Below are positions 27,036-59,330 of a DNA stretch of 64,000 nucleotides, piece after piece. The notes beneath the pieces were generated by a model that ran no database searches, was not told the DNA's origin, and saw only the letters and a list, made by a program, of their open reading frames with translations. The number at the start of each line of letters is the position of its first letter. Position 1 is the first letter of the stretch. The translations under genes and the position numbers were made by a program. This DNA is from Mesonia sp. HuA40 (GTDB lineage: Bacteria > Bacteroidota > Bacteroidia > Flavobacteriales > Flavobacteriaceae): positions 156,218 through 220,217 of the forward strand of contig NZ_VRLT01000026.1 of NCBI RefSeq assembly GCF_008017835.1, written 5' to 3'.

Positions 27036-27264
27036 GTGACCCCGGCAGATTGGCTACGCCTTCCTGACAAAGCTCCGCTTTGAAAATAAAAAAAACCTCA
27101 ATTTCAGTTTCAAGCAAGCTTGGCAGAAAGTGAGGTTTTTTTATTTATTCGTGACCCCGGCAGATTGGCTACGCCTTCCTGAAAAAGCTCCGCTTTGAAA
27201 ATAAAAAAACCTCAATTTCAGTTTCAAGCAAGCTTGGCAGAAAGTGAGGTTTTTTTATTTATTC
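27036..27264. repeat. Tandem duplication of the tRNA-Arg 3' flank with its terminator
   Basis: Two near-identical units of 115 bp (27036-27150) and 114 bp (27151-27264), differing by one substitution and one base in an A-run. Each begins with GTGACCCCGGCAG, the same 13 bases that form the 3' end of tRNA-Arg at 27265-27277, and each carries a hairpin of ACCTCA/TGAGGT with A and T runs, acting as a terminator for the tRNA on the minus strand. Confidence 0.9.
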
Positions 27265-27265
27265 G

Positions 27266-27339
27266 TGACCCCGGCAGGATTCAAACCTGCAACCCTCAGA
27301 GCCGAAATCTGATGCGCTATTCAGTTGCGCCACGGGGCC
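27266..27339 (-). tRNA. tRNA-Arg, anticodon TCG
   Basis: 74 nt on the minus strand. It starts GGCCCCG and ends CGGGGTC plus discriminator A; acceptor pairs fully apart from one G-T. D-stem GCGC/GCGC, anticodon stem TCAGA/TCTGA with loop TTTCGGC giving anticodon TCG, T-arm GCAGG-TTTGAAT-CCTGC. CCA is not encoded. The terminator follows in the repeat unit at 27151-27264. Confidence 0.95.
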
Positions 27340-56575: not shown

Positions 56576-57625
56576 TTATAAAATTAACATCGCATCGCCA
56601 TAACTATAAAACTTGTATTTTTCTTTAATGGCTTCTTTATAGGCTTTTTCCATTAATTCGTGCCCCATAAATGCCGAAATCATCATTAAAAGCGTTGACT
56701 TTGGCGTATGAAAATTAGTAATCATACAATTGGCAATACTAAAGTCATAAGGAGGAAAAATAAATTTATTGGTCCATCCCTTAAACTCGTTCAAGGTACC
56801 GTTTGATGAAACCGCACTTTCTAAAGAGCGCATAACGGTAGTACCTACCGCACAAACGCGACGCTTATCTTCTATACCCTTATTAACAATTTGAGTAGTT
56901 TCTTTGGCAATCTCTGCCTCTTCACTATCCATTTTATGTTTAGACAGATCTTCCACTTCAACAGGATTAAAAGTACCTAATCCTACGTGAAGCGTAACTT
57001 CGGCAAGATTTATCCCTTTAATTTCTAGACGTTTCAACAGATGTTTAGAAAAATGCAAGCCAGCGGTTGGGGCTGCTACTGCTCCTTCTTGCTTGGCATA
57101 TATGGTTTGATAACGTTCTGCATCTTCTGGCTCTACTTCCCTTTTGATGTATTTGGGTAGCGGTGTCTCTCCTAAATCATTTAATTTTTTTCTAAACTCT
57201 TCATAAGATCCGTCATATAAAAAGCGTAGGGTTCTTCCTCTAGAGGTAGTGTTATCGATAACCTCGGCCACTAAACTCTCATCTTCACCAAAATATAGTT
57301 TATTTCCTATTCTTATCTTCCTAGCAGGATCTACCAAAACATCCCATAATCGGGTTTCGGCGTTAAGCTCTCTTAATAAGAAAACCTCAATACGAGCCCC
57401 TGTTTTCTCTTTGTTTCCAAATAAACGGGCAGGAAACACTTTCGTGTTATTAAAAACCATTACATCATCGGTATCAAAATAATCGATTAGGTCTTTAAAC
57501 ATTTTATGCTCAATTTTTCCCGATTCTCTGTGTATTACCATCAAACGGGCTTCGTCGCGATGCTCAGAAGGGTATTCTGCTAATAACTCTTTAGGTAGTT
57601 CAAAATTGAACTGCGAAAGTTTCAT
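56576..57625 (-). CDS. queA: tRNA preQ1(34) S-adenosylmethionine ribosyltransferase-isomerase QueA
   Basis: Transfers and rearranges the ribosyl group of SAM to form epoxyqueuosine in tRNA anticodons. 349 residues: [23 protein letters not shown] at the N-terminus (given in part: [17 protein letters not shown]), [44 protein letters not shown] and [15 protein letters not shown]. The ATG at 57625 is chosen: an in-frame TTG at 57655 lies inside the -7 box TATATTTG (57660-57653). Confidence 0.95.
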
Positions 57626-57652
57626 TCCCATAGTATCATTTTTAAAAGAATG

Positions 57653-57660
57653 CAAATATA
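57653..57660 (-). promoter_or_regulatory. -7 box of queA
   Basis: TATATTTG on the minus strand, giving a leader of about 20 nt before the ATG at 57625. Confidence 0.55.
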
Positions 57661-57883
57661 CAACCTCAGACTAGGGGTTGTCAAGTAAAACGACATGTTT
57701 TTTACCTAAAATCTAGTGGGTTAGCTTTCGCGGATTCAAAGCTTGCTGTTATTTTAAATATAATGCCTCTATTACTGCTACTGATGCCAAAACTAATAAA
57801 GGTTTGAAATTGAAAAAATTGAATACAGGAAATAATAAAACAGTACATCTATAAGATTTTGAAAAAAGATAGGCTAGTACCTA
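57661..57883. other. Gene-free part of the queA-aroA interval
   Basis: No convincing gene. A plus-strand frame of some 40 codons without a start ends near 57852 and was rejected. The rest of the interval is occupied by the dyad array. Confidence 0.4.
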
Positions 57884-58015
57884 ACAAAAGTTGCTGTACT
57901 TTTTAAAATAACATAGGGAGCTTATTTACAAAAGTTGTACAACTCTTGAAAAAATATTGTACAATTTTTTTATAAATATTGTACAATTTTCGCTTAAATA
58001 TTGTACAATATTTTT
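57884..58015. repeat. Array of six dyads at exact 22-bp spacing
   Basis: Dyad centres lie at 57894.5, 57916.5, 57938.5, 57960.5, 57982.5 and 58004.5. The last four share the core TTGTACAA: GTTGTACAAC at 57934-57943, then ATTGTACAAT at 57956-57965, 57978-57987 and 58000-58009, flanked by A and T runs. The first two are different and weaker (AAAAGT-n6-ACTTTT; AAATAA-n10-TTATTT) but sit in exact phase. All dyads would lie on one face of the helix, as for cooperative binding of a dimeric protein. No regulator gene adjoins it. Confidence 0.7.
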
Positions 58016-58070
58016 TTATAAGTCGCAGAACAAATTATTACTTCTTAGGCAGCGTATTTATAAAAGTTGC

Positions 58071-59330
58071 TTATCTTTTATTTGATTTACCCATAAGTTT
58101 ATAAAAACCTGTTTTATAATTGATTAAAAAACCCATTTTCTCCCAATCTTTCCAAAAGCTTCGGTAAGATTTGGCTACCACTGCTTCATTCTCTATCATT
58201 AGGGGTACTTTTAAAGCTAATGGTGCAAAAGCCATAGCCATACGGTGATCTTGGTAGGTTTTTATAGTGGCGCTTTGCAGCGGATTTTGTTGGCGGCTCA
58301 AATGTAAACTTGAACCGGTAATACGCAAAGTTGCCCCTAAGCCTTGCATTTCATTTTTTAAAGCTTGTAGTCTATCGGTTTCTTTTATTTTTAAACTTTG
58401 CAAGCCAGACAAATCACAGCTCATACCTAAACCCAAGCAGGTAACTACTAAGGTTTGTGCCAGGTCTGGGTTGTTGACTAAGTCTAGGCTAAGATGGCTC
58501 GGAATTTCTTTCTCCACGCGTTTCAATTGTAATCCTTCGGATGTTTCTTGGGTTTCGACCCCCAATTTTTTGTACCAAGAGACTAAACGGGCATCTCCTT
58601 GTAAACTTTTTGTTTTAAATCCGTAAAGGAAACAAGTTGAACCTACAGGCGCTAAAGCCAAGGCGCTATAAAAATAAGAAGCCGAGCTCCAATCGGGTTC
58701 AACATTAATCTTTTGCGGCTTAAGCTGCTGGGGTTCAATTAATATTCGTTTTTCCTCTACTGCTACATGCACCCCCAATTGCGCCAACAGGTCAATAGTC
58801 ATTTGTACATAGGGTTTTGAAATGAGCCTGCCCTGTAAATGCAAGTCTAAACCCAAGGGTAGTTGATGCCCTACCAATAGTAAGGCCGTTATAAACTGAC
58901 TGCTAATACCTGCCTTAATATTTATTTGAGCAATTTGTTGAGAAAACCCATGAATTTTCACGGGTGGGTAGCCTTTGGTACCCAAGTAGGTAATTTTAGC
59001 TCCCAACTGCCGTAAGGCTTCCACCAAAGGTGCTACCGGTCGTTGCTGCATACGCTTGCTTCCGGTTATAATTTTTGTAACTTTTTGTTGCGTAGCAAAA
59101 TAAGCTAGTAAAAAACGCATAGCAGTACCGGCATGCCCCACATTAATATGTTCTTCTTGACTTTGCAGGGCTTTAATAAGCACTTGAGTATCCTCGCTAT
59201 CCGATAGGTTATCTAAAATCAAATCTGGACAAAATTGCTGAAGTATGAGCAAGCGGTTGCTAATGCTTTTGGAGCCGCTAATTTTAATCTTTGCCGCAAT
59301 AGGTGTTTTACTATGCTCTAGCCGTATCAT
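58071..59330 (-). CDS. aroA: 3-phosphoshikimate 1-carboxyvinyltransferase (EPSP synthase)
   Basis: Sixth step of the shikimate pathway, joining PEP to shikimate-3-phosphate. 419 residues: KISGSKSISNRLLILQQF, GHAGTAMRFLLAYF, SSQFITALLL, DWSSASYFYSALAL, LKIKETDRLQALKNEM, and the DHRMAMAFAPLAL motif. Last gene of the minus-strand operon beginning with DAHP synthase/chorismate mutase. The start overlaps the small membrane protein gene. Confidence 0.95.
   Translation of the reverse strand: MIRLEHSKTPIAAKIKISGSKSISNRLLILQQFCPDLILDNLSDSEDTQVLIKALQSQEEHINVGHAGTAMRFLLAYFATQQKVTKIITGSKRMQQRPVAPLVEALRQLGAKITYLGTKGYPPVKIHGFSQQIAQINIKAGISSQFITALLLVGHQLPLGLDLHLQGRLISKPYVQMTIDLLAQLGVHVAVEEKRILIEPQQLKPQKINVEPDWSSASYFYSALALAPVGSTCFLYGFKTKSLQGDARLVSWYKKLGVETQETSEGLQLKRVEKEIPSHLSLDLVNNPDLAQTLVVTCLGLGMSCDLSGLQSLKIKETDRLQALKNEMQGLGATLRITGSSLHLSRQQNPLQSATIKTYQDHRMAMAFAPLALKVPLMIENEAVVAKSYRSFWKDWEKMGFLINYKTGFYKLMGKSNKR

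What the first reader, a model, noticed from the sequence alone, without database searches (positions are those of the whole stretch)
57884..58015. Six dyads phased at exactly 22 bp, without a neighbouring regulator
Palindrome centres fall at 57894.5, 57916.5, 57938.5, 57960.5, 57982.5 and 58004.5. The last four share TTGTACAA; the first two have different arms but sit in exact phase. Twenty-two bp is two helical turns, so the sites face one side. The array is some 275 bp upstream of the queA promoter box and behind aroA, with no HTH gene next to it. It could be a cooperative operator, a centromere-like or iteron site, or a nucleoid-protein site. I know of no described Flavobacteriaceae element of this form.
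Basis: partly seen in the sequence, partly recalled or inferred. Interest (0 to 1): 0.7.

Follow-up and report, generated by a model that had tools for sequence, protein, structure and literature searches.

The report
Phased docking array for HU-like protein
Between two genes lies a row of four identical palindromes spaced exactly 22 bases apart; it is likely a docking strip for a histone-like (HU-family) protein whose own gene, elsewhere in the same genome, has the same strip in front of it.

Summary
The array is real: four exact TTGTACAA palindromes at 22-bp spacing (57935-58008), with two weaker in-phase dyads to the left. The genome has four such arrays. One of the other three lies directly upstream of a gene for an HU-HIG (PF18291) DNA-binding protein. 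That family is the one that recurs widely beside these arrays (10 genomes; next clusters 3). In the genus the close homologue is in 6 of 6 array genomes and 0 of 10 others. Homologues in the Polaribacter group carry the same phase with TTGTACAA or with another core, TACTAGTA; 22-bp TACTAGTA pairs occur in 7 of 116 genomes, all encoding the homologue. The core changed at least twice on the protein tree, and residue 13 separates the two classes. Around more distant HU-HIG genes, 19 of 60 regions hold gene-specific palindrome arrays at 22 or 23 bp (shuffles 0 of 300). The window array is most likely a remote binding platform for a sequence-specific, self-targeting HU-HIG protein. Binding, autoregulation and the role at aroA-queA are untested, and for 13 of 18 other array genomes no partner was found beside a TTGTACAA array.

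The parts
57928..58015 (.). Four 22-bp units, each centred on TTGTACAA (cores 57935-57942, 57957-57964, 57979-57986, 58001-58008)
   Evidence: sister arrays in the own genome
57884..57927 (.). Two weaker dyads in the same 22-bp phase (probable edge units)
   Evidence: 6 and 7 of 11 positions complementary, P>=6 = 0.062 and P>=7 = 0.0165; in-phase edge units also at sister arrays
58071..59330 (-). aroA-like gene whose 3' end faces the array (context, not part of the array)
56576..57655 (-). queA-like gene, 5' end facing the array at about 270 bp (context)

Best explanation
The array is likely a remote binding platform for a sequence-specific HU-family (HU-HIG) protein encoded elsewhere in this genome, whose gene is preceded by the same 22-bp-phased TTGTACAA array. 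Shown by sequence: four arrays, gene-array adjacency, co-occurrence across genomes, and a joint change of protein residue 13 and palindrome core. Inferred: one protein dimer sits on each palindrome; 22 bp, two helical turns, puts neighbouring dimers on one face so that they bind cooperatively; the protein regulates its own gene through the upstream array; at remote sites such as aroA-queA the same complex bends or bridges DNA as a local nucleoid anchor rather than acting at a promoter.
For: Four arrays in the own genome. One protein family beside arrays in 10 genomes, array upstream of the start in all ten; it is PF18291 HU-HIG in all five tested. Genus: close homologue (over 215 bits) in 6 of 6 array genomes, 0 of 10 others, Fisher p 1.2e-4. 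Upstream of 24 homologues not found through arrays, 22 bp is the sole best lag in 16, joint best in 5, not best in 3; downstream it is never sole best. TACTAGTA pairs at 22 bp in 7 of 116 genomes, all among the 19 with the homologue, Fisher p 1.1e-6. Residue 13: 11 N and 1 T with TTGTACAA, 19 S with TACTAGTA, the only fully separating column; at least two changes of core on the tree. Cores change less than spacers between G000 and G001: 1 of 128 against 13 of 168, p 0.005. Distant HU-HIG genes: strong arrays at lag 22 or 23 in 19 of 60 regions, 0 of 300 shuffles. Predicted HU fold with an N-terminal beta hairpin whose tip holds residue 13.
Against: No binding data. Close homologues stand beside arrays in only 4 of the 18 array genomes reached through loci, plus a distant HU-HIG gene in G062; for the other 13, among them the richest (G061, G063), none was found beside a TTGTACAA array in what I examined, which was not every HU gene. 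In an even phylum sample none of the best HU-HIG genes has an array in the 330 bp upstream, though four of 12 have one at the 3' side. Related genomes are not independent, so the Fisher values overstate. Promoters could not be placed. The structure model is of moderate quality (pLDDT 73.9, pTM 0.53) and no fold match reaches E 0.001. The site itself is shared only with G001. The anchor role is inferred from position alone.
Confidence: 0.78

Rival explanations
1. The HU-HIG protein binds here, but as an ordinary transcriptional operator that controls queA or insulates or terminates aroA, with no structural role.
For: The array lies between two tandem genes, upstream of queA and just past aroA. 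Seven of the 13 remote arrays examined lie between tandem genes and 2 between divergent ones.
Against: The array is about 270 bp or more from the queA start and is absent from the 13 other aroA loci in the genus. Among 50 classifiable arrays 17 are between convergent genes and 6 between divergent ones, against 66 and 64 of 440 background pairs, by crude ORF calling.
Confidence: 0.13
2. A selfish or neutral dispersed repeat (REPIN/BIME, MITE or slipped minisatellite) with no bound host protein.
For: Dispersed intergenic copies, many in some genomes (94 exact pairs in G061) with shared end sequences there. Whole 22-bp units are lost in G012.
Against: Y1 transposase (PF01797) does not follow the arrays: absent from G000, G012, G060, G062, G063, G064 and G067, present in array-less G002, G011, G014 and G015. 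Cores are kept while spacers change. A neutral repeat does not explain the tie to one gene family and the joint change of core and residue.
Confidence: 0.04
3. The unit of function is a hairpin in RNA or extruded DNA, for instance a terminator.
For: Flanking units are often reverse complements of their neighbour, and in the C54 locus a 13-bp stem is unchanged between G000 and G001 while its loop differs. Convergent intervals are over-represented.
Against: No Rfam match near the gathering score (20.2 of 60 and 17.8 of 58 bits). A hairpin needs neither a fixed core nor a fixed 22-bp pitch nor an HU-HIG gene.
Confidence: 0.03
4. A centromere-like or iteron site for partition or replication.
For: Phased palindromes or repeats are typical of such sites (recall).
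Against: No partition or replication family appeared among the recurrent neighbours that I looked at; several dispersed copies per genome, in numbers that differ widely.
Confidence: 0.02

Closest known systems
HU/IHF (DNABII) family, HU-HIG branch (Pfam PF18291; NCBIfam TIGR01201 HU_rel)
   Same: The partner protein matches PF18291 in all five proteins tested and has a predicted HU fold. IHF is a sequence-specific relative (passages of PMC5683647), and E. coli HU is cited as implicated in autoregulation of hupA (passages of PMC3969353).
   Different: HU is described as binding without sequence specificity (PMC5683647). Here each gene appears to have its own palindrome repeated at a two-turn pitch, and the protein has an extra predicted N-terminal beta hairpin.
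BrickBuilt minisatellite-MITE of Porphyromonas gingivalis (PMC4596501)
   Same: Intergenic arrays of 23-nt units in a Bacteroidota genome, 19 copies; the paper's table lists a PF00216 DNA-binding gene (PGN_0872) beside BrickBuilt_14. Several HU-HIG genes here have 23-bp arrays.
   Different: Described as a species-specific MITE with terminal inverted repeats near IS5-family ends and with promoter activity; no binding protein is named in the abstract and passages I saw. A link to HU-HIG is a lead only.
REP/BIME/REPIN elements with nucleoid-protein sites
   Same: Dispersed intergenic palindromes near gene ends that can carry sites for nucleoid proteins (recall).
   Different: No correlation with Y1 transposase; fixed 22-bp phase of one palindrome with changing spacers.
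IHF-type or repressor operator arrays and iterons
   Same: Phased sites on one face of the helix (recall).
   Different: The same array recurs at several places in the genome and the partner is an HU-HIG protein, not an HTH or Rep protein.

Membership tests
HU-HIG / HU_rel (partner protein) | Match to PF18291 over the curated cut-off | tested here: met
   91.4 to 102.4 bits against 26.2 in 5 of 5 proteins
HU-HIG / HU_rel (partner protein) | Match to TIGR01201 over the curated cut-off | tested here: inconclusive
   Own 74.1, L098 72.1 and L164 75.1 over 68.6; L062 66.3 and L064 65.6 just under
HU/IHF fold | HU topology | tested here: met
   Model of the G001 homologue, pLDDT 73.9; Foldseek top hits HU, probability 1.00, best E 5.7e-3; profile hit to Thermus HU E 5.6e-7
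Sequence-specific DNABII protein (works like IHF) | Binds a defined sequence | not testable with these tools
   Only indirect: joint change of core and residue 13
REPIN/BIME | Y1 (RAYT) transposase in the genome | tested here: not met
   Absent from 7 array genomes of the 24 genomes searched, present in 4 array-less ones
Structured RNA family | Rfam match over the gathering score | tested here: not met
   Two matches, 20.2 of 60 and 17.8 of 58 bits, window 57300-58600
Centromere or iteron | Partition or replication gene recurring beside the arrays | tested here: inconclusive
   Only HU-HIG recurs in more than 3 genomes; clusters were read by eye in part and not scanned for Par or Rep domains
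BrickBuilt | 23-nt unit AGAYCATARTATCCTCTCRTRTG with leader, tail and terminal inverted repeats | not tested
   Unit is 22 nt with another core here; P. gingivalis genomes were not searched

The most novel reading that the evidence does not exclude
HU-HIG proteins form a Bacteroidota-wide family of self-addressed nucleoid proteins. Each paralogue recognises its own palindrome, repeated at a pitch of two helical turns (22 or 23 bp) beside its own gene and at remote sites, so that one genome runs several parallel, mutually insulated nucleoprotein systems. Specificity is set largely by the tip of an N-terminal beta hairpin, with residue 13 as a switch between TTGTACAA and TACTAGTA.
Probability: 0.5. 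Interest if true: 0.9.

Novelty: new variant of a known kind. Interest (0 to 1): 0.82.

Why it matters
HU proteins are the standard example of non-specific nucleoid proteins, and Bacteroidota can encode many HU-HIG paralogues (15 matches in G063) whose roles I found no account of in the papers searched. A readable address for each paralogue would make these genes testable: sites can be listed from sequence, specificity can be swapped by one residue and one core, and the remote sites say where in the chromosome each protein should act.

Tried and rejected
REP/RAYT mobilisation: the transposase does not follow the arrays. RNA family: none near threshold. Local regulation of queA-aroA judged by synteny: only G001 shares the site. 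Viral origin: one viral contig matched the three-core pattern. TTGTACAA pairs with any gap of 5-35 over the phylum: 32 of 296 genomes had a pair, but among the places listed only the own genome, G144 and G292 have one at 22 bp; the TTGTACAA version is rare. Smaller clusters of flanking genes (3 genomes each) were common enzymes, ABC or sigma-factor proteins, or genes of close relatives (names by recall). Promoter overlap of the upstream arrays: a TATATTTG box shares bases with the last unit in only L231, L234 and L240 of 32, so repression by occlusion is not shown.

Rows dropped before counts: from the residue test L220, L228 and L232 of 34 (no clear class, broken frame, misplaced start); L231 was kept as TACTAGTA though its two core scores tie. 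In one search the Nostoc locus L088 carried the label of the horse MAG by default. In one search the start was misplaced for L271, L289 and L291. The control windows lie upstream only for plus-strand genes; one search is the proper upstream control for the canonical HU loci.

Papers: PMC4596501 abstract, outline and passages; PMC5771137 passages; PMC3969353 abstract, outline and passages; PMC5683647 passages; all others as search listings. Searches for prior reports; none of the listings showed a phased array tied to an HU-HIG gene. Most subscription papers are not in that library. A 2017 paper that I recall as defining HU-HIG was not seen.

Full report
What is there. The four TTGTACAA palindromes at 57935, 57957, 57979 and 58001 are exact and exactly 22 bp apart. 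The two units to the left are weaker dyads in the same phase.

It is not alone. The own genome has four arrays of four units, on C3, C33 (the window), C54 and C59; those on C3 and C54 have one unit with one mismatch. There are ten exact pairs at 22 bp and none for the reversed pattern. G001, a close relative, has all four arrays. Between G000 and G001, 1 of 128 core positions differs against 13 of 168 spacer and 97 of 1596 flank positions. In G012 one array, and the flank of another, each lack exactly one 22-bp unit.

Distribution. The exact three-core pattern hits 87 stretches in a collection of one genome per species; of the 80 listed, 79 have titles that I place in Bacteroidota and one is Nostoc. 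In 23 genomes, all chosen because they have such pairs, a gap of 5 to 35 was allowed: of 256 pairs the output lists 75, 74 of them at 22 bp and one at 23; the reversed pattern has none. In an even sample of 296 phylum genomes, 32 have a pair but, apart from the own genome, only G144 and G292 have a listed one at 22 bp. The TTGTACAA array is thus scattered and rare.

The partner. ORFs within 3 kb of arrays in 89 loci from about 27 genomes were compared. One family recurs in 10 genomes; the next clusters have 3. It is a protein of about 130 residues, PF18291 HU-HIG in the five tested, and in all ten the array is upstream of its start. Its own-genome copy is at C3:30919-31305, minus strand. In the genus the close homologue (over 215 bits) is in G000, G001, G005, G006, G010 and G012, the same six that have arrays within three mismatches; the other ten have no match or at most 90.2 bits. 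In 249 genomes of the family it is found at E <= 1e-45 only in G000, G001 and G540.

A second core. In 116 genomes of the genus of Polaribacter glomeratus, 19 encode the homologue. The DNA upstream of 34 homologues was scanned for any of 256 palindromes at lags 12 to 44. Ten of the 34 had been found through arrays. Of the other 24, 22 bp is the sole best lag in 16, joint best in 5 and not best in 3 (L220, L228, L231); downstream it is joint best in 3 of 34 and never sole best. The core is TTGTACAA in some and TACTAGTA in most. A genome scan for TACTAGTA pairs then gave 25 pairs in 12 genomes: 20 at exactly 22 bp in seven genomes, all among the 19, and five at other spacings in five genomes. 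Twelve of the 20 pairs are not beside an HU-HIG homologue, so the plan of an upstream array plus remote arrays recurs with the second core. Twelve of the 19 genomes have no exact 22-bp TACTAGTA pair.

Residue and core change together. In 31 proteins with a classed array, column 13 alone separates the classes: 11 N and 1 T with TTGTACAA, 19 S with TACTAGTA. On the tree two TTGTACAA proteins of the Polaribacter group (L199, L221) lie inside the TACTAGTA group, and starred branches force at least two changes. The model, made for the G001 homologue from 14 sequences (pLDDT 73.9, pTM 0.53), is an HU fold with an extra N-terminal beta hairpin, strands 4-10 and 21-27, with residue 13 between them. 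Foldseek's best hits are HU proteins, none under E 0.001. That the tip reads the core is inference.

Beyond the close clade. In 60 regions around more distant HU-HIG genes of ten array genomes, 19 have a strong array (at least 21 of 24 letters over three units) at lag 22 (8) or 23 (11); every other lag has at most 2; none of 300 shuffles reaches it. Some of the 19 are near copies of each other. Cores differ from gene to gene: GCATATGC, TCTATAGA, ATACGTAT, GTAGCTAC, GTGTACAC, CTTATAAG, GTCTAGAC and others. Upstream of 17 loci that read as canonical HU none reaches 21 at any lag (two starts misplaced). In an even phylum sample, none of the 12 best HU-HIG loci has a strong 22-bp array in 330 bp upstream (one start misplaced), but four have one on the 3' side of the gene. 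In G062, a Bacteroidales MAG, a distant HU-HIG gene (84.9 bits) has a TTGTACAA array upstream (L316), which ties one Bacteroidales genome to the same rule.

What stays open. Of 18 array genomes reached through fetched loci, four have the close homologue beside an array (G065, G070, G071, G077) and G062 a distant one; for the other 13 I found none beside a TTGTACAA array, though not every HU gene was looked at. In G075 an HU-HIG gene lies about 1.1 kb from TTGTACAA units. Some of the 13 are MAGs. The hairpin-like flanks, in which adjacent 22-bp units are reverse complements, are not explained. No promoter could be placed. What the remote arrays do is a guess from position: of 13 examined 4 are between convergent, 7 between tandem and 2 between divergent genes.

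Verdict. The finding is real and larger than described: a remote member of a set of phased arrays whose partner is very likely a sequence-specific HU-HIG protein. I call it a new variant of HU-family nucleoprotein systems, since specific relatives such as IHF are known, while a self-addressed palindrome code at a two-turn pitch did not show in the paper searches.

Noticed in passing
L302, L306, L307, L309, L311, L313, L314 (G063), L319 (G062), L326, L328 (G076), L339 (G075): Palindrome arrays at 23 bp, not 22, upstream of distant HU-HIG genes, each with its own core.
   Followed up: partly
L271, L274, L275, L277: 22-bp arrays (ATGCGCAT or CTGCGCAG) on the 3' side of HU-HIG genes in an even phylum sample; a related core also lies upstream of an HU-HIG gene in L348.
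   Followed up: partly
L005, L006, L007, L009, L011, L012, L014 flanks of the arrays: Flanking 22-bp units are reverse complements of their neighbours, in phase with the array; in the C54 locus the 13-bp stem is unchanged between G000 and G001 while the loop differs.
   Followed up: partly
L022 and other loci of the horse-feces MAG (G061): 94 exact pairs in one genome, with two recurrent end sequences around three-unit arrays; no partner protein found.
   Followed up: partly
L264 and L266: Remote TACTAGTA arrays beside the 3' end of the same gene (TrkH-like by recall) in two Polaribacter-group genomes.
   Followed up: no
G329:C8:37069-37244 and G329:C32:170192-170451 (L146): TTGTACAA at 42-bp spacing in a tandem array.
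   Followed up: no
L088 (Nostoc) and L108 (viral contig): TTGTACAA arrays at 22 bp outside Bacteroidota records: 15 units in Nostoc and a short one in a viral contig.
   Followed up: no
window 27036-27277: A 114-bp tandem duplication, 98% matches, 2.1 copies.
   Followed up: no
L276 and L279 upstream of HU-HIG genes: A single long palindrome (GTCAGACCCGGGTCTGAC and a variant) near the gene start in place of an array.
   Followed up: no
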